NCBI RefSeq assembly: GCF_900177655.1
Contig: NZ_FXWK01000002.1
Coordinates: forward strand, 124,001-188,000
Origin: Devosia lucknowensis
Lineage (GTDB): Bacteria > Pseudomonadota > Alphaproteobacteria > Rhizobiales > Devosiaceae
DNA: 64,000 nt
Reading direction: 5' to 3'
Positions 6,828 to 41,599 of this stretch are shown piece after piece. A program made the position numbers and the translations under genes. Under the pieces are notes generated by a model, which saw only the letters and a program-made list of their open reading frames with translations, was not told the origin of the DNA and searched no databases. Each line of letters starts with the position of its first letter. Position 1 is the first letter of the stretch.

Positions 6828-7856
6828 ATGAAACGGACTGCCAAGATCCTTGCCTACACAGCCCTCGCAGCCTCGCTGGCCGTCGGCTTCTCCGTCACTG
6901 CCCACGCGCAGGACAAGACGCTCATAAACGTCTCCTACGATCCGACCCGCGAACTCTATCGCGAATACAACGACGCCTTTGTCAAACACTGGCAAGAGAC
7001 AAAGGGCGAAAGCGTCGCCATCCAGGTCACGCATGGCGGCTCGGGCTCGCAGGCACGCACCGTCATCGACGGGCTCGAAGCCGATGTCGTGACCCTGGCG
7101 CTCGAAAGTGACATCAACGCCATTTCGGACGCCAATCCCGCGCTCATTCCGGCCGACTGGCGCGGTACGCTCGAAAACAACAACGCGCCCTACACCTCGA
7201 CCATCGTCTTTCTCGTGCGCAAGGGTAACCCCAAGGGCATCCAGGACTGGGGCGACCTGGTCGACGAGGGCGTCGAGGTGATCACGCCAAATCCCAAAAC
7301 CTCGGGCGGCGCGCGCTGGAATTTCCTTGCCGCCTGGGCCTGGGCCCGCGAAGCCAATGGCGGCGATGAGGCCAAGGCGCAGGAATATGTTGCCAATCTC
7401 TTCAAGCATGTGCCGGTGCTCGATACCGGCGCGCGCGGTTCCACCACCACGTTCGTGCAGCGCGGCATCGGCGACGTCCTGCTCGCCTGGGAGAATGAAG
7501 CCTATCTCGCCCTCGAGGAACTCGGCCCCGACGCGTTCGACATCGTCACGCCGTCGATTTCGATCCTCGCTGAACCGCCGGTGGCGCTCGTTCCGGGCAA
7601 TGCCGAGCGCAAGGGCAACCTTGAAGTGGCGCAGGCCTATCTCGAATACCTTTATTCGGATGAAGGCCAGGCCATCGCGGCAAAGCACTACTACCGCCCG
7701 TTCAAGCCCGAAGCCGCCGCTCCCGAGGACATTGCCCGCTTCGGCGACGTAAACCTTGTCACCATCGAGGACTTCGGTGGCTGGCGCGAGGCACAGCCGA
7801 AGTACTTTGGCGACGGCGGCGTGTTCGACCAGATCTACGCCGGTCCTACCCAGTAA
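6828..7856 (+). CDS. sbp: Sulfate/thiosulfate-binding protein of ABC importer
   Basis: 342-residue periplasmic binding protein of the Sbp/CysP family that delivers sulfate to the CysTWA importer encoded just downstream. It has a Sec signal peptide ending near AHA-QD (about residue 28). The mature start INVSYDPTRELYREYN and the block THGGSGSQARTVIDGLEADVVTLAL, which forms the oxyanion site, are family hallmarks. ATG 6828 is preceded by CGGGAGG. A strong hairpin after the stop and a 1.1-kb interval with two other genes separate it from cysT. Confidence 0.95.
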   Translation: MKRTAKILAYTALAASLAVGFSVTAHAQDKTLINVSYDPTRELYREYNDAFVKHWQETKGESVAIQVTHGGSGSQARTVIDGLEADVVTLALESDINAISDANPALIPADWRGTLENNNAPYTSTIVFLVRKGNPKGIQDWGDLVDEGVEVITPNPKTSGGARWNFLAAWAWAREANGGDEAKAQEYVANLFKHVPVLDTGARGSTTTFVQRGIGDVLLAWENEAYLALEELGPDAFDIVTPSISILAEPPVALVPGNAERKGNLEVAQAYLEYLYSDEGQAIAAKHYYRPFKPEAAAPEDIARFGDVNLVTIEDFGGWREAQPKYFGDGGVFDQIYAGPTQ

Positions 7857-7867
7857 GTCCCAATGCC

Positions 7868-7892
7868 GCGGCCGGTCCCAAAGACCGGCCGC
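7868..7892 (+). terminator. Strong hairpin after sbp
   Basis: Perfect 10-bp stem GCGGCCGGTC / GACCGGCCGC with loop CCAAA, 11 nt after the sbp stop and followed by a short ATCTGTTT. It probably ends most sbp transcripts or protects their 3' end, giving more binding protein than membrane components. Confidence 0.7.
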
Positions 7893-7927
7893 ATCTGTTT
7901 CGAGCCTCTGGAAACCACGAGGACAAC

Positions 7928-29472: not shown

Positions 29473-30516
29473 ATGAAGGTTTTGGCCGGTGAGGCAATGG
29501 GGGTGGCGGAAGGCCTGCTGATCGCAGCGGGCACGCCGGAAGCCCATGCATGCATTCAGGCCGACCACCTTCTCGAAGCTGAGCTGCGCGGTCATCCCTC
29601 GCATGGATTGCAGCGACTGCCACGCCTTTTAGACCGTATCGCAAAGGGCCTCGCCGATCCGCGCACCCGTGGCGCCGCCTCCTGGAACCGCTCGGGTGAA
29701 CTGCATGTCGATGGGCGACAGGGGCTCGGCCCCGTTGTCGCCCATGCGGCCATCGACGCTCTGGTCGAACGGGTTGGCGCCAGCGGCATTGCCTTTGCCG
29801 CGATCCGGAACGCCAACCATCTGGGCATGCTTGCCGGTTATGTCGATCGCATCGCCCGGACGGGGCAGATTGGCATGGCCCTGTCCACCAGCGAGGCGCT
29901 GGTTCATCCGCATGGGGGCACGCGCGCCATGCTGGGCACCAATCCCATCGCGATCGGCATTCCGACCGGTGCGGAGCCTTTTGTGCTCGACCTCGCCACG
30001 AGCCGGGTATCCATGGGCAAGATCCATGATCATGCGATGCGCGGTGCGCCCCTGCCTGACGGCTGGGCGCTCGACGCAGAGGGCAAGCCGACGACCGATG
30101 CGGACCTGGCCAAGCTTGGGTCCATCGCGCCCTTCGGCGGCGCCAAGGGCTATGGCCTGGGCCTGGCCTTCGAATTGCTGGTGGCAAGTCTGGCCGGCTC
30201 GGCCTTCGCCCCTCAGGTCCATGGCACGCTCGATGCCACCCATCCCGTCAACAAGGGCGATCTGTTCATCGTCATCGACCCCGCCCAATCGCCTTTCGGC
30301 GCAAGCGGCATCGGCGCCTATCTCGATCTGCTGCGATCCAGCCCGCCCGCTGACGCGGCCAGCCCGGTCTCCGTGCCGGGCGATCGCGCACGGGCCAGGC
30401 GCCAGAACGCTCTCGAGGCCGGTTTCGACATCAACGACCGCCTCTGGTCCGATTTGACCGACCGCCTCGCCTCTTCATCATCGACACCGCTCGCCATCCG
30501 GGAACTCCAGACATGA
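29473..30516 (+). CDS. Ldh2-family NAD(P)-dependent dehydrogenase
   Basis: 347-residue oxidoreductase of the malate/L-lactate dehydrogenase (Ldh2/YlbC) family, unrelated to classical LDH. Family hallmarks are ELRGHPSHGLQRLP (about 37-50), IRNANHLGMLAGYVDRIAR and GTNPIAIGIPTG, ending with FGGAKGYGLGLAFELL. Known members reduce 2-oxo acids such as diketogulonate, ureidoglycolate, sulfolactate or delta-pyrroline carboxylate relatives. First gene of a four-gene catabolic operon under the divergent GntR regulator; its own substrate is not evident. Confidence 0.88.
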   Translation: MKVLAGEAMGVAEGLLIAAGTPEAHACIQADHLLEAELRGHPSHGLQRLPRLLDRIAKGLADPRTRGAASWNRSGELHVDGRQGLGPVVAHAAIDALVERVGASGIAFAAIRNANHLGMLAGYVDRIARTGQIGMALSTSEALVHPHGGTRAMLGTNPIAIGIPTGAEPFVLDLATSRVSMGKIHDHAMRGAPLPDGWALDAEGKPTTDADLAKLGSIAPFGGAKGYGLGLAFELLVASLAGSAFAPQVHGTLDATHPVNKGDLFIVIDPAQSPFGASGIGAYLDLLRSSPPADAASPVSVPGDRARARRQNALEAGFDINDRLWSDLTDRLASSSSTPLAIRELQT

Positions 30517-31730
30517 GTCTATTCGCTGCCCTCAGACTGCCGCGCGAGGTGCTCTTCGGCACCGGACAGAGGCACGCCCTCGGCAAGGTCGCATCAGGCC
30601 TCGGCAAGCGCGCCCTGGTCTGCACCGATGCCCGCCTCGCTGGCGAAACCGTGTTCACCGACATGGTCGCGCTGCTTCGAAGCGAAGGAATAGACGTCCT
30701 CGTGGATGCGAGCGTGGAACCGGACGTGCCGCGCGATTCCTGCAACCGCGTCGCCGCGGGTGCACGCGCGTTCGGCCCCGATCTCGTCATCGGCATAGGC
30801 GGCGGCTCCTGCCTCGACCTCGCCAAGACGGTCGCGCTCTTGCTGCGTCATGGTGGTTCGCCGGAGAATTATTATGGCGAGGGCAAGGTGCCGGGTCCGA
30901 TCCTTCCGGTCATCGCGGTGCCGACCACGGCCGGCACCGGTTCGGAAGTCACACCCGTTGCCGTGCTGTCCGATCCCGATCGTGCCATGAAGATCGGCAT
31001 CTCGAGCGCCCACCTCATTCCGGCGGCGGCCATCTGCGATCCAGAGCTGACCGTGACCTGTCCGGCGGGCCTGACTGCCATAGCCGGCGCCGACGCGCTC
31101 ACCCATGCGATCGAGGCCTTCACGGCCACCCGTCGCCAGCCGACCCCGCTTCTCGCGCAGGAGCGCGTCTTCCTGGGCAAGAGCGCCCTTACCGATCATT
31201 TTGCCCTGCTCGCCATCGAACTTCTGGGCCGCAGCCTCGAACGCGCCTGGCGGACCGGAAGCGATCTCGACGCCCGCGCCGACGTCATGATGGGAGCCTT
31301 ATGCGCCGGCATGGCGTTCGGCACGGCCGGCACGGCCGCGGCCCACGCCATTCAGTATCCGATCGGCACCCTGACCCACACGGCACATGGTCTGGGCGTG
31401 GCGTGCATGTTGCCCTATGTCATGACGTACAATCGCTCGCATGCGCTACCGGAAATGGCGGCAATCGGGCGAGCGCTAGGAGCCACCGGGAACGACGAGA
31501 CAATACTGGCGGATGCGGCGATCGAGCGGGTCCGGGCGTTGTTCGAGCGGATCGGTATTCCTCCGACGCTCGGCGCCCTCGGACTTGAGGAGGCCAAGCT
31601 GGACTGGACCTGCGAGCAGGCCATGACCATTGCCCGGCTCATCAACAACAATCCGCGGCCCATCGACGCCGCCGCCATGAAACGCCTGGTCAGCGCCGCC
31701 TATACCGGCATGCTGAACACTGCGTCCTGA
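30513..31730 (+). CDS. Iron-containing alcohol dehydrogenase
   Basis: 405-residue group III (Fe-ADH) dehydrogenase. The nucleotide loop GIGGGSCLDLAKTVALL (about 92-108), TAGTGSEVTPVAVLS, and metal ligands in GADALTHAIEAF and AHGLGVACMLPYVMTYNR are all visible. It overlaps the Ldh2-type gene as ATGA. Together with the following aldehyde dehydrogenase it would carry an alcohol through aldehyde to acid; maleylacetate reductase-like or hydroxyacid dehydrogenase activity cannot be excluded. Confidence 0.9.
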   Translation: MSLFAALRLPREVLFGTGQRHALGKVASGLGKRALVCTDARLAGETVFTDMVALLRSEGIDVLVDASVEPDVPRDSCNRVAAGARAFGPDLVIGIGGGSCLDLAKTVALLLRHGGSPENYYGEGKVPGPILPVIAVPTTAGTGSEVTPVAVLSDPDRAMKIGISSAHLIPAAAICDPELTVTCPAGLTAIAGADALTHAIEAFTATRRQPTPLLAQERVFLGKSALTDHFALLAIELLGRSLERAWRTGSDLDARADVMMGALCAGMAFGTAGTAAAHAIQYPIGTLTHTAHGLGVACMLPYVMTYNRSHALPEMAAIGRALGATGNDETILADAAIERVRALFERIGIPPTLGALGLEEAKLDWTCEQAMTIARLINNNPRPIDAAAMKRLVSAAYTGMLNTAS

Positions 31731-31748
31731 TCACGAAGGAACTCGACA

Positions 31749-33221
31749 ATGAGTCAAGCACACGCCATCCCGCTCGCCAATGACAGCCTCAACTGCAGCC
31801 GCTTCGCCAAGGGGCTCTACATTGGTGGCAAATGGATCGCCGGATCGGGCATATCGGTCGTCGATCCGTCGACCGAGGCGGTACTGGCCGAAGTTGCCGA
31901 TGCCGGAGAGGCCGATGCGCGCGCGGCAGTTGATGCTGCCGAAGCCGCCGCACCGGGCTGGCGCGCGACACCGCCGCGCCAGCGGGCGGAAATCCTGCTC
32001 CGCTGTCACAAGTTGATGCTTGAGCGGCTCGATGAACTGGCGACGCTGATCTCGCTCGAAAACGGCAAGGCCCTGTCCGATGCACGTGGCGAAGTCACCT
32101 ACGCCGCCGAGTTCTTCCGCTGGTATGCCGAGGAGGCTGTACGGATTTCGGGCGAGTATCGCATGGCGCCCTCGGGCAGCAATCGCATCCTCGTCGACAT
32201 GGAGCCGATCGGCATTGCCGTGCTGATCACGCCCTGGAATTTCCCGGCCGCCATGGCCACCCGGAAGATCGCGCCCGCGCTGGCGGCCGGCTGCACGGTC
32301 GTGCTCAAGCCCGCGAGCGAAACGCCGCTGACGGCCTATGCCCTGGCCGATCTCTATGCCGAAGCCGGCGTGCCGGCAGGCGTCGTCAACGTCATCACCA
32401 CCAGCCGCCCCGGCCCGGTGACGGCCACCATGCTCAACGATGCGCGAGTGCGCAAACTCTCCTTCACCGGTTCGACCGGCGTTGGCCGGACGCTTCTCGC
32501 CGAGGCGGCAAAGACCGTTCTCAGTTGCTCCATGGAGCTGGGTGGAAACGCGCCCTTCGTGGTCTTCGATGATGCCGATCTTGACGCGGCGCTCGATGGC
32601 GCCATGGTCGCCAAGATGCGCAATGCCGGCGAAGCCTGTACCGCGGCCAACCGCTTCATTGTCCAGGATGGCATCTACGACCGGTTTGCCGAGGCGCTGA
32701 GCCAGCGCATGGCGGCGCTTCGCGTCGGCCCCGGCACAGATCCGGCTACCTCTTGCGGACCGATGATCACCCGGAAGGCCGTCGACAAGATCGAGACCCT
32801 CGTGGCCGACGCCACTGCCAAGGGTGCGCGCGTGCTGGTGGGCGGCAAGCGGCCTGAGGGCAAGGGCTTCTTCTACCCGCCAACCGTCCTGGCAGACGTG
32901 TCGCCGGGCGCCGACATGGCGCGGGACGAGATCTTCGGGCCGGTGGCGCCGCTTTATCGCTTCACCACCGAGGACGAAGCGGTGCGCCTTGCCAACGACA
33001 CCGAATACGGCCTTGCCGCCTATGTCTTTACCACCGACCTCAAGCGTGGTCTTGGCGTGGCGGGGCGGATCGAGGCGGGCATGGTGGCCCTCAACCGCGG
33101 TCTGGTGTCCGATCCGGCAGCGCCATTCGGCGGGGTCAAGCAGAGCGGTCTCGGTCGTGAGGGCGGCGTGCACGGCATCGCCGAGTTCATGGAGCCCAAA
33201 TACATCGCGACCTCGTTCTGA
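31749..33221 (+). CDS. Aldehyde dehydrogenase, succinate-semialdehyde dehydrogenase type
   Basis: 490-residue NAD(P)-dependent aldehyde dehydrogenase of the GabD-like class. It has [27 protein letters not shown] (cofactor), the general base in [11 protein letters not shown] and the nucleophile Cys in [12 protein letters not shown]. The C-terminal [10 protein letters not shown] block is typical. It begins 18 bp after the alcohol dehydrogenase gene and its last base is shared with the next start. The true substrate in this operon is unknown. Confidence 0.9.
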
Positions 33222-34012
33222 TGGTCGACCTTTTTCGCACCCGCGACCACGTCCCCGAGTTCGAGGACTACGTCGCCCAGTATGCGCAACGCAGTGCCCA
33301 AACGCGGTCACGGCTGCGGGCGGACCTCGACGTCGCCTATGGCGCGGGTGCGGATGAGCGGCTGGACCTGTTCTTCCCGCCACGGCTCGACGGCCCCGCG
33401 CCGGTGCATCTCTTCGTCCACGGCGGCTACTGGCGCATGTTCGGCAAGGGCGATTTTTCGTTCGTCGCCGATACGGTCACGGCCGCCGGAGCCATTGCGG
33501 CGGTGATGGACTATTCGCTGATGCCGGCGGTGCGGATGGAGACCATCGTCGCCCAGGTCAAGAGCGCCGCGCGCTGGCTCGTCGCCAATGCGGGATCGTT
33601 CGGCGGCGAGGGGGCGAGGCTCTCCATGTCCGGGCACTCGGCCGGCGCGCATCTGTGCGCCACGCTGCTCGCCGATGCCGGGGCGCCGCGCCCCAGGGGT
33701 TGCCTGCTGCTCAGCGGCGTCTACGACATCGCGCCGCTGCGCCAGTCGTTCCTCGATCCGCTGATCGGCATCACGGCGGCGGAGGCGGCGGCGTTTTCCC
33801 CGCTGCATCTGCCGATCGACACCACCGCCGACATCCGCATCCTCGTCGGCGAGCGGGAAACGGCGCCGTTCCACGACCAGGCGGCCGCGCTTGCGGCACG
33901 GCTCGGTCGGCCGGTGCAAACCATTGCCGGGGCCGACCACATGAGCGTGGCGCTCGACCTCGGCAATCCCGATACGAGCGTCGGCAGGGCTCTCGCCGCG
34001 CTCTGCGGTTGA
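33221..34012 (+). CDS. Alpha/beta hydrolase, esterase or arylformamidase-like
   Basis: 263-residue hydrolase with the oxyanion motif HGGYW (67-71) and nucleophile GHSAG near residue 136. Asp and His of the triad are plausible in ILVGERETAPF and AGADHMSV. It resembles kynurenine-formamidase-like esterases. No signal peptide. It closes the catabolic operon and would release an alcohol or acid for the upstream dehydrogenases. It converges on the importer genes 6 bp away. Confidence 0.85.
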   Translation: MVDLFRTRDHVPEFEDYVAQYAQRSAQTRSRLRADLDVAYGAGADERLDLFFPPRLDGPAPVHLFVHGGYWRMFGKGDFSFVADTVTAAGAIAAVMDYSLMPAVRMETIVAQVKSAARWLVANAGSFGGEGARLSMSGHSAGAHLCATLLADAGAPRPRGCLLLSGVYDIAPLRQSFLDPLIGITAAEAAAFSPLHLPIDTTADIRILVGERETAPFHDQAAALAARLGRPVQTIAGADHMSVALDLGNPDTSVGRALAALCG

Positions 34013-34018
34013 CTGCCC

Positions 34019-35668
34019 CTAGAGCAGCGCCTGCTCGTTGCGTCCCATGAAGCGGAAGGCGAGGTACACCGCGCAGCCGCTGAGCAGCAACAGCACCGTC
34101 GAGAGGGCGGCGGCCACGCCGAAATCGCCATCGAGGATCAGCAGGTAGATGCGCACCGGCATGGTCATCGTGCTGCCCACATAGAGCACCAGCGAGGACG
34201 ACAGCTCGTTGATTGCGGTGACGAAGCTCAGCATCCCGCCGGCGATGATGCCCGGCACGATCAGCGGCACGGTGATCCGCAGGAAGGCCTGGAACGGGCT
34301 GTAGCCGAGCGAGATGGCCGCCTCTTCCATGCTGGGCGAGATCTGGCGCAGCGACGAAGCCGTGGTCCGCACCGTGTAGGGCAAGCGGCGGATGAAGATC
34401 GACAGCACGATGATCGCCGCCGTGCCGGTCAGCACGATCGGGCCGGTATTGAAGGCCGCGATGAAGGCGATGCCGATGACGATGCCGGGCATCACGTAGG
34501 GCACCATGAAGGCGCCGTCGAGCAGCGCCGTGTTGAAATTGGTGCGCCGCGCCACGAGCACGCCCACGATCGTCCCCACGACCACGATCAGCGCCACGGC
34601 GGCGAAGGAGAAGGTGAGCGAATTGCGCACCACGTCGCCCAGGCCGAACAGGATGCGCTCGTAGCTCTGCAGCGCGAAGCCGTCCTGGAACACCGGGCCG
34701 CTGGTCTTGCGGAACGAGTAGATCACCGAAATGATCACCGGCAGCGCGCCGCAGAGGCCGATGAAATACACGGCGAAATGCGCGAGCACATTGCGCCACC
34801 CCTTGAGCTGGATGCGCACCGGCTTGTTGATCATGTTGCCGTGGTAGACGTTGCGGCGCGACATGTAGCGCTGCAGCAGCACGAAGAGCATGGAAACGAG
34901 GATCAGCACGACGCTGATCGTGGTCGCCATCGACATGTTCGAGCCCACTTCGGCGGCGTAGAGCGTGAAAGCTTCGGTGGCGAGCACGTTATAGCCGCGG
35001 CCGAGCAGGCGCGGCGTGCCGAAATCGGCGATGGCATGGATCAGCGCCAGGAGGCCGCCGGCGGTCAGCGCGGGAAACACCATGGGGAAGGAGATTTTCA
35101 TGGTGCGCTGCCAGGGCGTCAGCCCCAGGCCTTCCGCGGCTTCCTCGAGCGAACGGTTGACGTTGCTCAGCGCCCCGGAGACCATCAGGTACACATAGGG
35201 GTAGAACTTGAGCGAGAAGACGATGAGGATGCCGCCGACCCCGTAGATCGGCGGCATGTTGATGCCGAAGTCGCGCAGGAAACCGCGCACAACGCCCCCG
35301 GCGCCGAACAGCACGATCCACGAATAGGCCCCGATAAAGGGCGGCGAGACCAGCGCCAGGATGGCGAGCAGCGATACGAACTTGCCGCCGCGAATGACGA
35401 AGCGCGACACGCAGAAGGCCATGATCGAGCCGAGCAGCAACGCGCCGATGAGCCCGCCGAAGCCGACTACCAGCGTGTTGACGAAGGCCTGCAGGAAGCG
35501 CGGTTCGCCCAGGAATTTGAGATAGTTGGCGAAGGTGAAGTTGCCGCTCTGGTCGTAGAGGCTGGAGACCAGCACCGAGCCGACCGGAATGAACAGCAGC
35601 ACGAACAGCATGATCCAGGTGAGGATCATGGCGACGGTCCAGAAATTGAAGCGTGGCATGGCGATCAC
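34019..35668 (-). CDS. FbpB/AfuB-type ABC permease, two fused permease domains
   Basis: 549-residue membrane protein in which two binding-protein-dependent permease domains are fused, with about 12 hydrophobic segments. EAA-type loops occur twice, as SLEEAAEGLGLTPWQRTMKI and SMEEAAISLGYSPFQAFLRI. The family is usually named for iron(III), but the associated binding protein lacks iron ligands. GTG 35668 overlaps the ATPase stop as GTGA; ATG 35659 is an alternative. Confidence 0.9.
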   Translation of the reverse strand: MIAMPRFNFWTVAMILTWIMLFVLLFIPVGSVLVSSLYDQSGNFTFANYLKFLGEPRFLQAFVNTLVVGFGGLIGALLLGSIMAFCVSRFVIRGGKFVSLLAILALVSPPFIGAYSWIVLFGAGGVVRGFLRDFGINMPPIYGVGGILIVFSLKFYPYVYLMVSGALSNVNRSLEEAAEGLGLTPWQRTMKISFPMVFPALTAGGLLALIHAIADFGTPRLLGRGYNVLATEAFTLYAAEVGSNMSMATTISVVLILVSMLFVLLQRYMSRRNVYHGNMINKPVRIQLKGWRNVLAHFAVYFIGLCGALPVIISVIYSFRKTSGPVFQDGFALQSYERILFGLGDVVRNSLTFSFAAVALIVVVGTIVGVLVARRTNFNTALLDGAFMVPYVMPGIVIGIAFIAAFNTGPIVLTGTAAIIVLSIFIRRLPYTVRTTASSLRQISPSMEEAAISLGYSPFQAFLRITVPLIVPGIIAGGMLSFVTAINELSSSLVLYVGSTMTMPVRIYLLILDGDFGVAAALSTVLLLLSGCAVYLAFRFMGRNEQALL

Positions 35669-36720
35669 CCTGCGATGCGGGCGCCGTCGGCGCCGAAGGC
35701 CATGGGCGCATTGCGCGGGATGACGACCGTCACGGCCTCACCGGCTTCGCGGGTCGCCGCCATGCCCGGATTGGCGATCTGCACCACCAGCAGGCCGGCA
35801 GGGGTGTCCACCTGCACATGCGCTTCGCGCCCGAGATAGGTGTATTTCGTCACCGTGCCTGCCAGCGTCGCGCCCTGTGCGCCATCGCCCCCGGGTCCGG
35901 TCAGCAGCAGGTGCTCCGGGCGCGCCGCCCAGGTTGCCGCAGCCGGCGCCTTGAGGTCCAGCGTGGCCAGCATGGCGTCGAGCGCCGGGCCGGGGGTGAA
36001 CACGTTGATCGTCCCCACGAACTCGGCGACGAAACGGGTCTGCGGATTGCCGTAGATTTCCTGCGGCGTACCCACCTGTTCGATGCGCCCGGCATTCATC
36101 ACGCAGATGCGGTCCGAAATGGCCAGAGCCTCTTCCTGGTCGTGCGTCACATAAATGGTTGCGATATCCACCTGCTTCTGGATATCGCGGATTTCCTCGC
36201 GCAGCTCGATGCGCAGTTTGGCGTCGAGGTTGGACAGCGGCTCATCCATGAGCAGCAGGCGCGGATTGATGACCATGGCACGCGCAAGGCCGATACGCTG
36301 CTGCTGGCCACCCGACATGGCGGCCGGCAGGCGCTCGGCCATCGCGCCGAGGCGAACCGCCTCGAGAGCCTGCGTAACCCGCGTCTTGATCTCGGCGGCC
36401 GGCACTTTGCGGGGCTTCAGCCCGAAGGCAACATTGTCGAACACGCTCAGGTGCGGAAACACCGCATAATCCTGGAACACCATGCCGATGTCGCGCTGGT
36501 GCGGCGGCACGGCGCGCAGGTTGGCGCCATCGAGGGTAATGCTGCCCGAGGTGAGGTCGTTGAAGCCGGCGATGGCGCGCAACAGCGTGGTCTTGCCACA
36601 TCCGCTGGGTCCGAGCAGCGTGAAGAATTCCCCCCGCTCGATCGAAACCGACACCCCGTTCAAAGCCATGAATGTTGGCCCGAACTGCTTGGTTGCGTCG
36701 GCGACCGTCAAATAGCTCAT
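35665..36720 (-). CDS. FbpC/AfuC-type ABC ATPase
   Basis: 351-residue ATPase with Walker A GPSGCGKTT (about 37-45), signature MSGGQQQR, Walker B LLMDEPLSNLD, H-loop VTHDQEEA and a C-terminal TOBE-like domain. It precedes the fused permease in a two-gene operon and is divergent from the gene for its binding protein across a 125-bp gap. The substrate is more likely a phosphorylated sugar than iron, from operon context. Confidence 0.9.
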   Translation of the reverse strand: MSYLTVADATKQFGPTFMALNGVSVSIERGEFFTLLGPSGCGKTTLLRAIAGFNDLTSGSITLDGANLRAVPPHQRDIGMVFQDYAVFPHLSVFDNVAFGLKPRKVPAAEIKTRVTQALEAVRLGAMAERLPAAMSGGQQQRIGLARAMVINPRLLLMDEPLSNLDAKLRIELREEIRDIQKQVDIATIYVTHDQEEALAISDRICVMNAGRIEQVGTPQEIYGNPQTRFVAEFVGTINVFTPGPALDAMLATLDLKAPAAATWAARPEHLLLTGPGGDGAQGATLAGTVTKYTYLGREAHVQVDTPAGLLVVQIANPGMAATREAGEAVTVVIPRNAPMAFGADGARIAG

Positions 36721-36845
36721 GCCGTTTTCTCCCTCATCCCTTTGGCTCTAAGACACCCCACAAACTTTCGTATTGCAACATATTTCCGCGTAGTTCAGGA
36801 TAAAATCGATCTCGCAATGATCGTAATCGAAAAGGGAGGATTCGA
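36721..36845. promoter_or_regulatory. Divergent promoter region of the FbpABC-like importer
   Basis: 125-bp gap between the ATPase gene (-) and the binding-protein gene (+). It holds two loosely inverted blocks, CTTTCGTATTGC (36765-36776) and a GCAAT...CGAAAAG run (36814-36834). TTTCG/CGAAA half-sites are common in DeoR-family operators, and a DeoR gene lies two genes downstream. The match is imperfect and low in confidence. Confidence 0.3.
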
Positions 36846-37838
36846 ATGAACATTCGCAAACGTACATTTCTCGCTCTGTCGGCGGCGGCGCTGATCGCCT
36901 CGACCAGCATGACGTCGCTGGCCCTGGCGCAGGATGGCTCCGTGGTCATCTACACCGCGCACAAGTCGTCCATCGTCGATACACTTCTGCCCATCTTCGA
37001 GCAGGAAACCGGCCTCAAGGCCGAAGTGGTCAAGCTCGGTTCGGGTGACATCGCCAAGCGCGTGCAGGCCGAAGCCGGCGCCCCGGCGGCAGACGTCATC
37101 TGGTCGATTTCGGGCAGCCAGCTCACCGAGCTCGAAGACCTGCTCGAACCCTACACCCCGCCCGAGGCCGACCAGATCGATCCGCAATTCGTCAAGGACG
37201 ATTCCTGGACGCCATACACCGCCGTGGTCTACGTGCTAGCCGTCAATACCGACCTGCAGCCGATCGACACCGCGCCCAAGACCTGGGCCGAACTGGCCGA
37301 TCCGAAGTGGGCTGGCCAGATCGCCAGCGCCCGTGCCGATGGTTCGGGCTCGGCCATGCAGCAGCTCCAGACGGTGCTCACCGTCTTTGGTGACGAAGGC
37401 TGGGACAAGTATGCCGAGATCGCCAAGAACTTCGTGTTCGCCGACTCGTCGGGCGCCGTGCCGCGCTTCGTGGCCGATGGTGAAACCTCGATGGGCCTGA
37501 CGCTCGAGGATAACGCTCTCGAATACGTCCAGGGCGGTGCACCGATTTCGATCGTGCATCTTGCCGATGGCACGGCCGCGACGCCCGATGGCGTTGCTCT
37601 GGTCAAGGGCAGCCCCAATCCAGAAGGCGGCAAGGCCTTCATCGATTGGGCCATGTCCAAGTCCACCCAGGAAAAGCTGGCCATGGATATCGGCCGCCGC
37701 TCCGTGCGTCTGGACGTCGCCGGTCCGGCCGGCACGCCGAACCTCGCCGACCTCACCCTGGTCAACGTCAAGCCCCTGAGCGACTTCGGCGGTGCCGAGG
37801 AAGTGCTCGCGAAGTGGCGGACCGCGATCGGCGAATAA
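36846..37838 (+). CDS. Periplasmic binding protein, AfuA-like, lacking iron ligands
   Basis: 330-residue solute-binding protein of the FbpA/AfuA fold with a signal peptide ending near SLALA-QD (about residue 28). Mature blocks include VIYTAHKSSIVDTLLPIFEQETG and ADVIWSISGSQL. Ferric-binding proteins carry an adjacent Tyr-Tyr pair in the C-terminal half; none is present here, the corresponding region reading VADGETSMGLTLEDNA. AfuA homologues bind hexose phosphates, and the nearby nagA, nagB and phosphatase genes favour a phosphorylated sugar. 2-Aminoethylphosphonate is the main alternative. Confidence 0.85.
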   Translation: MNIRKRTFLALSAAALIASTSMTSLALAQDGSVVIYTAHKSSIVDTLLPIFEQETGLKAEVVKLGSGDIAKRVQAEAGAPAADVIWSISGSQLTELEDLLEPYTPPEADQIDPQFVKDDSWTPYTAVVYVLAVNTDLQPIDTAPKTWAELADPKWAGQIASARADGSGSAMQQLQTVLTVFGDEGWDKYAEIAKNFVFADSSGAVPRFVADGETSMGLTLEDNALEYVQGGAPISIVHLADGTAATPDGVALVKGSPNPEGGKAFIDWAMSKSTQEKLAMDIGRRSVRLDVAGPAGTPNLADLTLVNVKPLSDFGGAEEVLAKWRTAIGE

Positions 37839-37880
37839 GCCGAAACCGGTTCAACGACAGAAACACCAGAGCAGGACCAT

Positions 37881-38897
37881 ATGAGGCAGCTTGAAGCATT
37901 TTCGCTGGGCAAGAAGTTCGGCCATCCGGAGACCAACGAAGATAGCCTCGTGGTCATGCCAAACCTCGGTTACGCCGTCATCGACGGCGTGACCGACCGC
38001 AATGGCACACGCTATGGCGGCATGCTGTCGGGGCAGTTCGCCTCGCGCACCGTGCAGCGCGCCATCGAAACCTTCCTCCTGGCCCAAGGCCGGGCGGATG
38101 CCGAAGATCGGCAATTCCAGGGCGGCGAACACTTCGTCGACTATCTGGGCAAGGCCATCCACGCCGGTTACGTGGCCAATGGCGCTCTGGACGCCGTGGA
38201 GAAAGACTGGAAGCTGCGCGGTGGCTGCACCGTGATGGCCGCCCTCATCATCGGCGACCGGCTGGAAGTCGTCGCGGTCGGCGATAGTGGCATCCGCATC
38301 AACGGCCACGACACGCTGCAAGTACTCAAGCCACTCGACGACGTCACCGCCATCCTGCGCCGGGAAACCTGGCGCTTCTTCGAGGCGCAAGGCAAATCCA
38401 TCGACGAGTGCGATCGTCTTGCCGCCTCGATGACCTGGCAGGGTACGCGCAACCAGCCCGCCGGTAGCATCACGGCCGACGATGCCCTCATCGCTGCCAT
38501 CGAGGATCGGGCCATGGCGGCGTGCCGGCAACACCTGCCGCACGTGCCGGATGCCGAATTGCTGCTGCTTGTCCAGCACGGCATTTCCCATGGCCAGGGC
38601 AAGTTCCAGAACGTCACCGAACCGGTGCTGGGCTATGGGGGCATCGACGGCTTCGACGTCCCTTCCCGCTATGTTGAAACCCGCAGCTACGCACTGGCAG
38701 ACATCGAGACAATCGAGCTATTCTCCGATGGCTATTTCAAGCCGGGAGCCGGCTTCGGCGTCGCCTCGTGGGAAGCAGCATTCCAGGAGGTGGAAGCCGA
38801 AGACTTCCACAAGATCGGGCGCTACATGAGCACCAAGGGCACGACCCCCACGCAATTGACCGACGACCGCACCTATCTCGGCGTGCGGTTGAAATGA
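37881..38897 (+). CDS. PP2C-like metal-dependent phosphatase
   Basis: 338-residue protein with the PP2C metal-binding layout: NEDS (19-22), VIDGVTD with D35-G36, GDSGIRING near residue 137, FSDGYFKPG near 280 and a terminal TDDRTYLGV. These are the four Asp-containing motifs of the fold. It is soluble and has no sensor or SpoIIE domain. It lies between the sugar-phosphate-type binding protein and the DeoR regulator, overlapping the latter as ATGA. It may dephosphorylate an imported sugar phosphate or act on a protein of the pathway; both are inference. Confidence 0.8.
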   Translation: MRQLEAFSLGKKFGHPETNEDSLVVMPNLGYAVIDGVTDRNGTRYGGMLSGQFASRTVQRAIETFLLAQGRADAEDRQFQGGEHFVDYLGKAIHAGYVANGALDAVEKDWKLRGGCTVMAALIIGDRLEVVAVGDSGIRINGHDTLQVLKPLDDVTAILRRETWRFFEAQGKSIDECDRLAASMTWQGTRNQPAGSITADDALIAAIEDRAMAACRQHLPHVPDAELLLLVQHGISHGQGKFQNVTEPVLGYGGIDGFDVPSRYVETRSYALADIETIELFSDGYFKPGAGFGVASWEAAFQEVEAEDFHKIGRYMSTKGTTPTQLTDDRTYLGVRLK

Positions 38898-39712
38898 GCG
38901 GCGAGATCGCGCCGCGCCTCGGCGGCGGGGTGGAACCGGCCGCCCCCGATACCGGGCGCGCGGCCGACCGTCGTCAGGCGATCCTGCATGCCGTGCGCAC
39001 CAACGGCGCCGCATCGGTCGCCGAGCTCGCCGCCCGGTTCGACGTCACCTACCAGACGATCAGGCGCGACCTGCGCACTCTCGAAGAGCAAGGCCTGCTG
39101 CAAAAGGGTTTTGGCGGGGCCTTCGCCTCACCGGGCGTGGCCCATCACACCCTCGACGAGCGTCACGCCATTCAGATGACCGTCAAGCGTCAGTTGGTGC
39201 TGGCCCTCGAGGAATTTCTAGTGCCCGGCGCCACCATCTTCGTGGGTCTGGGGACGACGTTCGACAGTCTCCACGAAGTGTTGGCCCGTCATCCCGGCGT
39301 GCTGATCGCCACGCCCAATCTTGAAGTGGCCCATTCCTGCGCGCTCAAGACCGACGCAACCGTCTATGTCTATGGCGGCTATGTCCGCAACAAGGACTCC
39401 TCGGTCCTGACCCTCGCCGATGAGAGCCGCCAGCGCTTCAAGTTCGACGTTGCGGTCATAGGTGCCAGCGCCATCGACCGCGATGGCACGGTTCAGGAAT
39501 TCGATCCGATGGAAGTCGACCTCGTCCGCACCATCCTCCCTCAGGCGCGGCAGGTGATCCTCGTCGCGCATGACGAGAAATTCGAAAAACGTGCCCCGCA
39601 TGTGGTGACGCAGATGAGCCACGTAGATGTGCTGATCACCAATGGCGATCCCGCCGGGCGGTTCGACACCGCATCGGCGCTGGCCTCGACGCGGGTGATC
39701 GCGCTCCCTTAA
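38894..39712 (+). CDS. DeoR/GlpR-family regulator
   Basis: 272-residue regulator with an N-terminal helix-turn-helix (SVAELAARFDVTYQTIRRDLRTL, about 39-61) and a C-terminal DeoRC sugar-phosphate sensor domain (FVGLGTTFDSLHEVL, TPNLEVAH, VDLVRTILPQARQVILVAHDEKF). DeoR proteins are usually repressors released by a phosphosugar, which suits the neighbouring importer and nag genes. ATG 38894 overlaps the phosphatase stop. The 3' end overlaps nagA by 4 bp in convergent orientation. Confidence 0.92.
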   Translation: MSGEIAPRLGGGVEPAAPDTGRAADRRQAILHAVRTNGAASVAELAARFDVTYQTIRRDLRTLEEQGLLQKGFGGAFASPGVAHHTLDERHAIQMTVKRQLVLALEEFLVPGATIFVGLGTTFDSLHEVLARHPGVLIATPNLEVAHSCALKTDATVYVYGGYVRNKDSSVLTLADESRQRFKFDVAVIGASAIDRDGTVQEFDPMEVDLVRTILPQARQVILVAHDEKFEKRAPHVVTQMSHVDVLITNGDPAGRFDTASALASTRVIALP

Positions 39713-40713
39713 GCGGCTGGCAGTCGTTCGATCGTTGGCGTCATGTCGGAGGCCCATCGCACCCGACCGCTCTCCATGACGATCCCGTGGTGTCGCATGC
39801 TGTCTGCAAGCGCGCGGCGCGGCGCCTTCGAAGCCATGGCAAGCGCCGTTTCCGCCTCGAGGCCAGCCCAGGCCATCGTGTTGCGCACCGCGTCGTCGAG
39901 ACACAGGGCCGATCCGGCCAGCATGGTCTTTCCCGGCTGGACCATGGCACCACTCGACGTGCGTTCCACGGGTATGCCCGCGAATGTGTAGACACCAGGG
40001 TCCGCGGCCGCACCGAGCACCGCGTCGGTGACGAGAATGCACTTGTCCGCGCCCTTGATCCGGATCATGGCCGCCAGCGCGTCCGGCGACATGTGGTGAC
40101 CATCGGCGATAAGACACGCCGCAAGGCGGGGCTCGGACAGTTGTGCGAGGAGCGTGTTCTCGAGCTTGGGCAAGGAGTGCGGCAACCCGTTGCCGAGATG
40201 GGTCGACATCGTCAGGCCCGCATCGGCGGCAGCGCTCACTTGCGCAAAGTTGGCCGCCGAATGGGCCATGGCGAGTGTCTTGCCCCGTCGCCGCATCGCG
40301 GCGATGAAATCTCCCGCCCCTTTTCGCTCGGGCGCCAGCGTCACAAGCAGGATCGGCCGCGAGAGACCATCCTCGATACGCGCGATAACCGCCGCATCGG
40401 GGTCGGTCATCGCCGCTTGCGGGTGGCAACCGGAATAGCCGTCCCCGGCATTCAGAAACGGCCCTTCCAGATGATAGCCGGGCACCATGGCCGGACCCAG
40501 CCGGCTCGAGCGCACGGCATGGTCGAGTGCCGCGAAACGCTCGGCAAGCTCATCGGGGAAAGCCGTGATGATCGTTGGCAGGCATTGCGTCACGCCCGAG
40601 ACGAGCATGGCTTCGAGCGCCAGGTCGAGCTTGGCCGGGGTCAGGGACGGATCATTGAAATCCACCCCGGCATAGCCGTTGACCTGCAGGTCGGAGAGGC
40701 CGTCACTGATCAT
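39709..40713 (-). CDS. nagA: N-acetylglucosamine-6-phosphate deacetylase, short form
   Basis: 334-residue amidohydrolase that removes acetate from GlcNAc-6-phosphate. Metal/active-site residues by alignment with the family are E83 (HLEGPF), H151 (MAHS), H172 (THLGNG) and D230 (VTDAV). It begins directly at the first barrel strand (SDLQVNGYAGVDFND) and so lacks roughly 50 N-terminal residues present in E. coli NagA (382 residues). The start is fixed by the ATGA overlap with nagB, so this is not a misread start. A related phosphosugar amidohydrolase remains possible. Confidence 0.87.
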   Translation of the reverse strand: MISDGLSDLQVNGYAGVDFNDPSLTPAKLDLALEAMLVSGVTQCLPTIITAFPDELAERFAALDHAVRSSRLGPAMVPGYHLEGPFLNAGDGYSGCHPQAAMTDPDAAVIARIEDGLSRPILLVTLAPERKGAGDFIAAMRRRGKTLAMAHSAANFAQVSAAADAGLTMSTHLGNGLPHSLPKLENTLLAQLSEPRLAACLIADGHHMSPDALAAMIRIKGADKCILVTDAVLGAAADPGVYTFAGIPVERTSSGAMVQPGKTMLAGSALCLDDAVRNTMAWAGLEAETALAMASKAPRRALADSMRHHGIVMESGRVRWASDMTPTIERLPAA

Positions 40714-41444
40714 TCGAGCATGCTCGCCGAGGCCCGATCAAGATGCAGCGTCGCATTGGGGTGCCGCTGCAGGATCGATGCCGGATGGAGCGGCGACACC
40801 GGCTGCTGCACGGCCTGGCGGACCGCGAGGGCCTTGCGCTGGTCGGGCACGCTGAGCACGATCTTTCGCGACTTCATGATCTGCCGGATGCTCATCGAGA
40901 TCGCCCGAGCGGGAACGGCCTCGATACTGTCGAACCACCCTTCCCCGAACTGCTGTTGCCGGCATGCCGCGTCGAGGTCGACCACGATATAGGGATCCTC
41001 GATGGCAAAGTCGGCCGGGGGGTCGTTGAAGGCCAGGTGGCAGTTCTCGCCGATGCCGGCGAAACACACGTCGACCGTTTCGTCCGCGAGGCGGGCATTG
41101 AGCCGCGCCACTTCTTCCCCGAGATCGGCCGCATCGCCGCCGACTTCCACGAACTCCCGCAAGCCTTTCACCCGGTCGACGAAGCGCGTGCGCAGATAGC
41201 CGCGGAAGCTCGCCCTGTGCGTTGCCGGCAGGCCGACATATTCATCGAGGTGGAAAGCCGCCACGCGGCTCCAGTCGATGTCGTGGCCGACCAGTGCGTC
41301 GAGCATGGCGAACTGGCTGGCGCCAGTGGCGACGATGATGGTGGCCTGGCCCGCACGTGCAATGGCGTGGTTGATGGCGGCGGCGCCGTCCTCCGCGGCG
41401 TGCCGACCCAGTTCGTCGCCATTCTCGTGTATCTTCAGTTCCAT
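40710..41444 (-). CDS. nagB: Glucosamine-6-phosphate deaminase
   Basis: 244-residue enzyme converting glucosamine-6-phosphate to fructose-6-phosphate and ammonia, the step after NagA. Catalytic D67 (FHLDEYVG) and H136 in GIGENCHLAFNDP are present. Relative to E. coli NagB (266 residues) the Asp of the DGH triad is Asn134, a change common in the GIGENG subfamily, and the C-terminus is shorter. First gene of a nagB-nagA pair. Repeats in the 191-bp upstream gap are likely regulatory. Confidence 0.9.
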   Translation of the reverse strand: MELKIHENGDELGRHAAEDGAAAINHAIARAGQATIIVATGASQFAMLDALVGHDIDWSRVAAFHLDEYVGLPATHRASFRGYLRTRFVDRVKGLREFVEVGGDAADLGEEVARLNARLADETVDVCFAGIGENCHLAFNDPPADFAIEDPYIVVDLDAACRQQQFGEGWFDSIEAVPARAISMSIRQIMKSRKIVLSVPDQRKALAVRQAVQQPVSPLHPASILQRHPNATLHLDRASASMLE

Positions 41445-41521: not shown

Positions 41522-41582
41522 GTTAGCGGCCGGTTAGCAAATTGGCCCTGGCGCTGCGCCAGATGCTAACCGCGTGTTAGCA
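41522..41582. repeat. Phased GTTAGC repeat cluster upstream of nagBA
   Basis: Four copies of GTTAGC: three direct (41522, 41533 and 41576) and one inverted (GCTAAC, 41565). The 41522/41533 and 41565/41576 pairs are each offset by 11 bp, about one helical turn. Two copies extend to GTTAGCAAATTG (41533-41544 and 41576-41587). The inner pair makes the perfect inverted repeat TGCTAAC-CGCGT-GTTAGCA. A small hairpin CTGGCG-CTG-CGCCAG (41548-41562) lies between them. This looks like an operator array 80-140 bp upstream of nagB. Confidence 0.55.
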
Positions 41583-41599
41583 AATTGCCTGGATACGAG

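What the first reader, a model, noticed from the sequence alone, without database searches (positions are those of the whole stretch)
34019..41444. Sugar-phosphate import and breakdown cassette disguised as an iron transporter
The FbpABC-like importer would be annotated as ferric iron, but its binding protein has no Tyr-Tyr iron pair. The genes beside it are a PP2C-like phosphatase, a DeoR phosphosugar-type regulator, and convergent nagA and nagB. AfuABC homologues are known to take up hexose phosphates. A system taking in GlcNAc-6-P or a similar phosphosugar directly, with the phosphatase handling phosphate release or signalling, would be a new arrangement.
Basis: partly seen in the sequence, partly recalled or inferred. 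Interest (0 to 1): 0.75.

Follow-up and report, generated by a model that had tools for sequence, protein, structure and literature searches.

The report
Phosphosugar importer with its own phosphatase
A soil bacterium (Devosia) carries a gene set that could easily be mislabelled as an iron transporter but most probably imports phosphate-bearing amino sugars, and it comes with its own unusual phosphatase and sugar-breakdown genes, a pairing that recurs in related bacteria.

Summary
The cassette (34019-41444, Devosia): fused permease and ATPase, divergent from binding protein (SBP), PP2C-like phosphatase and DeoR regulator, then convergent nagA-like and nagB-like genes. The SBP has no Tyr-Tyr pair; its closest solved relatives (AfuA, VcA0625, P5PA, 6lkg) bind phosphate esters and rank ahead of iron proteins, but only one of AfuA's three sugar contacts is kept.

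(2) The amino-sugar link is real: in two Devosia-genus genomes SBP-PP2C-DeoR-nagB-nagA are collinear; all 14 genomes with this nagB are among the 29 of 75 with a PP2C-family gene; a distant PP2C-importer set in Neorhizobium ends in AgaS-NagK-NagA-like genes.

Best reading: import of a phosphorylated (amino)sugar, handled by a PP2C-fold small-molecule phosphatase. Ligand and PP2C substrate are untested; direct GlcNAc-6-P uptake is possible, not shown. New variant of the AfuABC kind.

The parts
34019..35668 (-). ABC importer permease, two BPD_transp_1 halves fused (AfuB/FbpB/PhnU2-like)
   Evidence: PF00528 two stretches; best NCBIfam PhnU2 208 bits (cut-off 593, not met)
35665..36720 (-). ABC importer ATPase with TOBE domain
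   Evidence: PF00005, PF08402; best NCBIfam PhnT2 367 bits (cut-off 458, not met)
36766..36780 (+). TTTCGTATTGCAACA, conserved operator candidate between the divergent ATPase and SBP genes
   Evidence: exact in 12 of 15 aligned loci, one or two changes in L018, L022, L023; only exact copy in the genome (two more at 2 mismatches on C1); within 2 mismatches of it in DeoR-bearing loci whose gap is held, not in the DeoR-less loci scanned; a second, inverted copy in L026 (G259), L071 (G319) and L211 (G1475), weaker pair in L212
36818..36832 (-). possible degenerate second, inverted half-site just before the SBP gene
   Evidence: by position and partial match to TGTTGCAAAACGAAC of L026/L071; weak (6 of 15 positions differ, counted by hand)
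36846..37838 (+). Solute-binding protein (type II, AfuA/FbpA fold); residues 1-29 look like a signal peptide (by eye; low confidence in the model)
37881..38897 (+). PP2C-fold phosphatase with a helical insert (helices between residues 151 and 242)
38894..39712 (+). DeoR-family regulator (HTH_DeoR + DeoRC sensor)
   Evidence: nearest models NF008154 (DeoR/GlpR) and AgaR, both below cut-off
39709..40713 (-). NagA-like deacetylase lacking the N-terminal ~50 residues of NagA
40710..41444 (-). NagB-like glucosamine-6-phosphate deaminase/isomerase
41533..41587 (+). Two exact GTTAGCAAATTG copies (41533-41544, 41576-41587) upstream of nagB
   Evidence: 0 of 100 shuffles reach 2 matches at 1 mismatch; among fetched loci exact only in stretches of this same genome

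Best explanation
A phosphosugar uptake and use system. The SBP captures a phosphorylated sugar, most likely a phosphorylated (N-acetyl)amino sugar, using Ser/Gly loops that hold the phosphate; the fused permease and ATPase import it intact; in the cytoplasm a dedicated PP2C-fold phosphatase removes phosphate from the imported compound (small-molecule, not protein, phosphatase); the sugar then enters the amino-sugar route (re-phosphorylation by a NagK-type ROK kinase where the imported phosphate was not on C6, then NagA-like deacetylation and NagB/AgaS-like deamination). DeoR senses a phosphosugar and represses the two divergent operons. Shown: gene content, conservation, predicted folds, co-occurrence and collinearity. 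Inferred: ligand class, PP2C substrate, order of steps, DeoR operator and effector.
Against: No ligand or activity data. AfuA's H205 and E229, each essential for G6P binding, are replaced (E221, T246), so the sugar site differs. This nagB is in 14 of 75 genus genomes against 29 with PP2C; of the 14, G1513 has it apart and G1516 shows it only across contig ends; nagA is a remnant in G1514 and missing in G1492. The operator candidate is not upstream of nagB. The PDB fold matches of the PP2C are mainly protein phosphatases. G1020 has a PP2C relative (E 2.4e-21) without an ABC importer, a weak match sits in an actinobacterial plasmid without one, and a shorter paralogous family has none. Whether close relatives of this SBP occur without a PP2C was not searched; a neighbouring paralogous importer in several Devosia has none.
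Confidence: 0.5

Rival explanations
1. Direct uptake of GlcNAc-6-P or GlcN-6-P that feeds NagA/NagB without dephosphorylation; the PP2C is only a safety valve against sugar-phosphate overload.
For: nagB-nagA collinear with SBP-PP2C-DeoR in two genomes; co-occurrence; NagB-type enzymes act on 6-phosphates (recalled).
Against: In the sets examined PP2C stays with the importer while nagAB comes and goes; a NagK-type kinase follows PP2C in the Neorhizobium set, pointless if the 6-phosphate is kept.
Confidence: 0.17
2. The PP2C is a regulatory Ser/Thr protein phosphatase acting on the transporter, the regulator or a kinase.
Against: No Ser/Thr protein kinase gene noticed in the neighbourhoods read (read by eye, not searched with a kinase model; the own genome was not searched for kinases); regulators change while PP2C stays with the importer; helical insert and further invariant basic residues K11, R139, R160, K319; companion genes are metabolic.
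Confidence: 0.18
3. The substrate is another phosphate ester or phosphonate (2-aminoethylphosphonate, glycerophosphodiester, polyol phosphate); nagAB serve a side role.
For: Best NCBIfam names are PhnS2/T2/U2; STM0429 is a fold relative; GDPD lies between ABC and PP2C in G051.
Against: All Phn models below cut-off; a phosphatase does not cleave C-P bonds; amino-sugar genes recur in three kinds of PP2C-importer set.
Confidence: 0.1
4. Ferric-iron (or metal-citrate) importer as automatic annotation would say.
Against: No YY in the SBP; closer to phosphate-ester binders; sugar-type regulators and genes.
Confidence: 0.02

Closest known systems
AfuABC (hexose/heptose-phosphate ABC importer, Actinobacillus/Citrobacter; PMC4546632, passages seen)
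   Same: SBP fold and closest solved relative by sequence and fold; phosphate-loop residues; annotated as iron before its ligand was found
   Different: Only D206 of the H205/D206/E229 sugar contacts is kept (D222; others E221, T246); divergent two-operon layout; PP2C, DeoR and nagBA attached
acc (agrocinopine) system of Agrobacterium pTiC58 (PMC4526662, passages seen)
   Same: Works like it: ABC import of a phosphosugar compound, putative cytosolic phosphatase AccG, repressor AccR whose effectors are pyranose-2-phosphates
   Different: AccF phosphodiesterase acts first there; here a PP2C-fold enzyme, and a GDPD gene only in the G051 set. Sequence relation of AccA, AccG or AccR to the window genes was not tested
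6lkg-l/6lki (HptA, S. aureus G6P sensor SBP; name and role recalled) and P5PA (pyridoxal-5-phosphate SBP; PMC8427247, passages seen)
   Same: Same SBP neighbourhood by sequence and fold; 6lki shares the DGxALVK region and the S(V/I)RxDV end
   Different: HptA works with a two-component system (recalled; listing); P5PA binds a cofactor
Bacterial PP2C protein phosphatases (PstP, tPphA, Stp1)
   Different: No significant sequence match in the PDB (best E 0.26); DGATD-type motif, helical insert, importer linkage
Alphaproteobacterial-type nag operon (GntR, NagB-II-like, NagA) elsewhere in this genome
   Same: Same chemistry expected
   Different: It lies on C1 (L124; NagA above cut-off, NagB-II 309 v 430 bits); the window pair is a separate, divergent nagB/nagA

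Membership tests
AfuABC sugar-phosphate importer | SBP nearest to AfuA rather than to iron binders | tested here: met
AfuABC sugar-phosphate importer | H205/D206/E229 motif that the AfuA authors used to call homologues (passages) | tested here: not met
   E221/D222/T246 by the alignment (chain numbering = paper + 2, my mapping)
AfuABC sugar-phosphate importer | Binds and transports hexose phosphates | not testable with these tools
   needs ITC and uptake
FbpA-type ferric binding proteins | Adjacent Tyr pair ligating iron (role recalled; Y195 and Y196 mutants of FbpA are listed) | tested here: not met
   no YY in 330 aa
2-aminoethylphosphonate importer (PhnS2/U2/T2 models) | Curated equivalog scores | tested here: not met
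   125 v 393, 208 v 593, 367 v 458 bits
PP2C/PPM phosphatase superfamily | Fold | tested here: met
PP2C/PPM phosphatase superfamily | Metal-binding Asp motifs | tested here: met
   D21, D35-G36, D135, D283-G284, D328-D329 invariant in 35 rows; metal role by recalled motif
PP2C/PPM phosphatase superfamily | Pfam PP2C_2 gathering score | tested here: not met
   21.2 v 24 bits; some relatives carry PF13672
PP2C/PPM phosphatase superfamily | Phosphatase activity, substrate | not testable with these tools
   assay needed
NagA (TIGR00221) | Score above curated cut-off | tested here: not met
   156 v 226 bits
NagA (TIGR00221) | Catalytic His/Glu/Asp positions | tested here: met
   HLEGP, GCHP, AHS, THLGN, DGHH, VTDA line up with 1ymy; roles recalled
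NagB | Score above curated cut-off (TIGR00502) | tested here: not met
   118 v 237 bits; Pfam PF01182 is met (60.7 v 27)
DeoR family | HTH_DeoR plus DeoRC | tested here: met
   60.8 and 104.7 bits, above cut-offs

The most novel reading that the evidence does not exclude
A branch of the PP2C fold has become a dedicated small-molecule phosphatase for imported sugar phosphates: its short flap is replaced by a helical cap, it travels as a fixed partner with ABC importers across Alphaproteobacteria under interchangeable sugar regulators, and in Devosia and Neorhizobium it defines a route 'import phosphorylated amino sugar, dephosphorylate, re-phosphorylate at C6, deacetylate, deaminate' for sugars whose phosphate is not on C6 (for example hexosamine-1-phosphates from bacterial or fungal polymers).
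Probability: 0.35. Interest if true: 0.75.

Novelty: new variant of a known kind. Interest (0 to 1): 0.58.

Why it matters
Such SBPs risk being annotated as iron transporters. If the reading holds, it adds an importer class for phosphorylated amino sugars in soil and root bacteria, gives a likely function to a PP2C-like family whose members sources call hypothetical protein, PrpC or PP2C-domain protein, and offers a testable case of a PP2C-fold enzyme working on small molecules.

Tried and rejected
Iron importer: rejected (no YY; relatives). Phosphonate importer: names only, below cut-offs. nagAB as chance neighbours: I leaned to this after (nagAB beside few loci; no shared operator) and dropped it. 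My notebook entry 9 wrongly said nagA is missing in G1528 and G1501; one search shows it there, and entry 10 corrects it. A shared operator for nagB: not found; the exact GTTAGCAAATTG occurs in no fetched locus of another genome. Literature: searches showed no paper describing this arrangement (open-licence library; two searches found none; one listed 12 of 40 and 108 listed 8 of 933).

Limits of the counts. The hypergeometric 1.4e-7 ignores kinship; the nagB cut (E below 1e-87, 55% identity or more) was set after seeing the gap to the next full-length hits (42-43% and less); 61 of 75 genomes have some match at E 1e-3, the weaker ones including other NagB/6-phosphogluconolactonase-type proteins. 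The genome samples overlap, and 19 and 102 used one sequence, the others alignment A3. Matches outside Alphaproteobacteria: Miltoncostaea plasmid (35% over 43% of the query, E 2e-7; no importer beside it) and G1020 (same phylum, class not known). Partial matches in a Bosea plasmid (22% of the query; an ABC ATPase gene is near) and an Agrobacterium plasmid (28%) were not followed. Protein searches listed the best 120 of 542 and of 537. A shorter paralogous family (L064-L067, L109, L110, L112, L113) has no importer beside it; gene reading there was mechanical.

Rows left out of the 58: genome-contig loci L009-L024 (several are the same genomes as G handles), matches with E above 1e-14 (G151 among them), contig-end fragments of G573 (L090, L091) and the second pieces of G1470 (L196) and G1020 (L100). 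The window itself is one of the 54. G305 (fragment), G620 and G1506 (contig ends) could not show flanks and are counted as misses with G1020.
Full report
What is there. The window is from a Devosia genome (most named relatives found with the PP2C are Devosia; the genus search holds 75 genomes; G000 has 3.71 Mb in two contigs). The importer is SBP, fused permease, ATPase. PP2C and DeoR follow the SBP; nagB and nagA lie on the other strand and meet DeoR tail to tail.

PP2C and importers. At E 1e-3 the family is found in 26 of 397 genomes of the order, 15 of 385 of the class sample, 10 of 398 of the phylum sample, 8 of 394 of family f23 and 29 of 75 of the genus; samples overlap and many hits outside the genus are weak. 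Of 58 places chosen as told in Tried and rejected, 54 have an importer gene within 1.2 kb, on the same strand in 51; the other four are one fragment, two contig ends and G1020. Layouts differ: SBP-PP2C-DeoR with divergent ATP-perm; SBP-ATP-perm-PP2C with a ROK, a LacI-type or a two-component regulator; SBP-PP2C-ATP-perm; an ABC-GDPD-PP2C set (G051); a CUT1-like ABC with ROK, Gfo/Idh and PP2C (G646). These regulators are of kinds often used for sugars (recalled). A phosphatase that keeps company with importers of several kinds, with no fixed regulator and next to metabolic genes, fits an enzyme for the imported compound. I did not search how often this SBP occurs without a PP2C.

Amino-sugar genes. 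In 75 Devosia-genus genomes the window nagB has orthologues (E below 1e-87, 55-100% identity) in 14; all 14 are among the 29 with a PP2C-family gene (hypergeometric 1.4e-7, no correction for kinship). In ten of them nagB lies within 2 kb of the window-type PP2C; in G1516 the pieces sit at two contig ends; in G1486 nagB starts 157 bases from the SBP of a second, distant PP2C-importer set; in G291 it is 11 kb from such a set; in G1513 it is apart. In G1528 and G1501 the order is SBP-PP2C-DeoR-nagB-nagA, all on one strand. nagA is a remnant of 80 aa in G1514 and missing in G1492. Beyond Devosia, a Neorhizobium plasmid has SBP-ATP-perm-PP2C-AgaS-ROK kinase (best model N-acetylglucosamine kinase)-NagA in two frames; AgaS, kinase and NagA matches are below their cut-offs. 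G151 has a partial PP2C at a contig start, then an AgaS fragment and a NagK-like piece. G1486 and G291 carry nagB, a SIS sugar-isomerase-type gene and a NagA-like gene. So amino-sugar enzymes of different families accompany PP2C-importer sets of more than one kind.

Regulation. TTTCGTATTGCAACA in the SBP/ATPase gap is exact in 12 of 15 aligned Devosia and Rhizobium-group loci and changed by one or two bases in three, has one exact copy in the genome, comes with an inverted second copy in L026, L071 and L211, and is not found within 2 mismatches in the DeoR-less loci scanned (L138 and L139, which have DeoR, were not scanned). It is the likely DeoR operator (inferred). It does not occur before nagB, which has its own repeats, so in this strain nagBA may be under another regulator.

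Rest of the genome. A GntR, NagB-II-like, NagA operon and a MurNAc-6-P etherase-type gene lie on C1; the other PF01182 gene looks like 6-phosphogluconolactonase between zwf- and edd-like genes (read by eye). A NagK-like kinase is on C2 (212 bits, cut-off 380). The cell therefore could take a dephosphorylated N-acetylhexosamine back to the 6-phosphate, and the window nagBA is not its only GlcNAc-6-P route.

Comparison. It works like AfuABC (import) joined to something like the acc system (putative phosphatase plus a repressor that senses a sugar phosphate; passages of PMC4526662). It is not filed as an AfuABC member because the sugar motif is not met. The paper searches showed no description of a PP2C-importer pairing.

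Verdict. Observation confirmed; interpretation partly supported and in one respect (the nag link) better supported than its author could know. The new element is the PP2C partner. Ligand and PP2C substrate need the bench.

Noticed in passing
L111 (G1020) 7021-7902: A PP2C-like gene (E 2.4e-21 to A3) beside what read by eye like hexuronate TRAP uptake and breakdown genes rather than an ABC importer.
   Followed up: no
L064-L067: A shorter PP2C-like paralogue (about 275 aa) in one genus lies beside a HAD gene that reads like trehalose-6-phosphate phosphatase and a LysR regulator.
   Followed up: no
L010, L012, L014, L016, L202-L205, L210: A second FbpABC-like importer (SBP about 31% identical; the L202 copy's best model is PhnS2, below cut-off) sits next to the cassette without its own PP2C; not seen in the window.
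   Followed up: partly
L022 9836-11484: In Rhizobium populisoli the cassette is followed by what reads like a Pit phosphate transporter and its PhoU-like partner.
   Followed up: no
L062 6236-7950: GDPD gene directly before PP2C in an ABC operon, recalling the AccF-AccG pair of the acc system.
   Followed up: partly
window 29473-34012: Separate (+) set: sulfolactate/malate-type dehydrogenase, iron-type alcohol dehydrogenase-like (by eye), aldehyde dehydrogenase, HSL-like esterase; ends 6 bases from the permease end.
   Followed up: no
L024 and L206 (Devosia algicola): SBP, ATPase and PP2C frames are interrupted in this record, sequencing error or decay.
   Followed up: no
L115 6662-7504 (Miltoncostaea oceani plasmid): A weak PP2C-family match in an actinobacterium, annotated hypothetical, with no importer gene beside it.
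   Followed up: no
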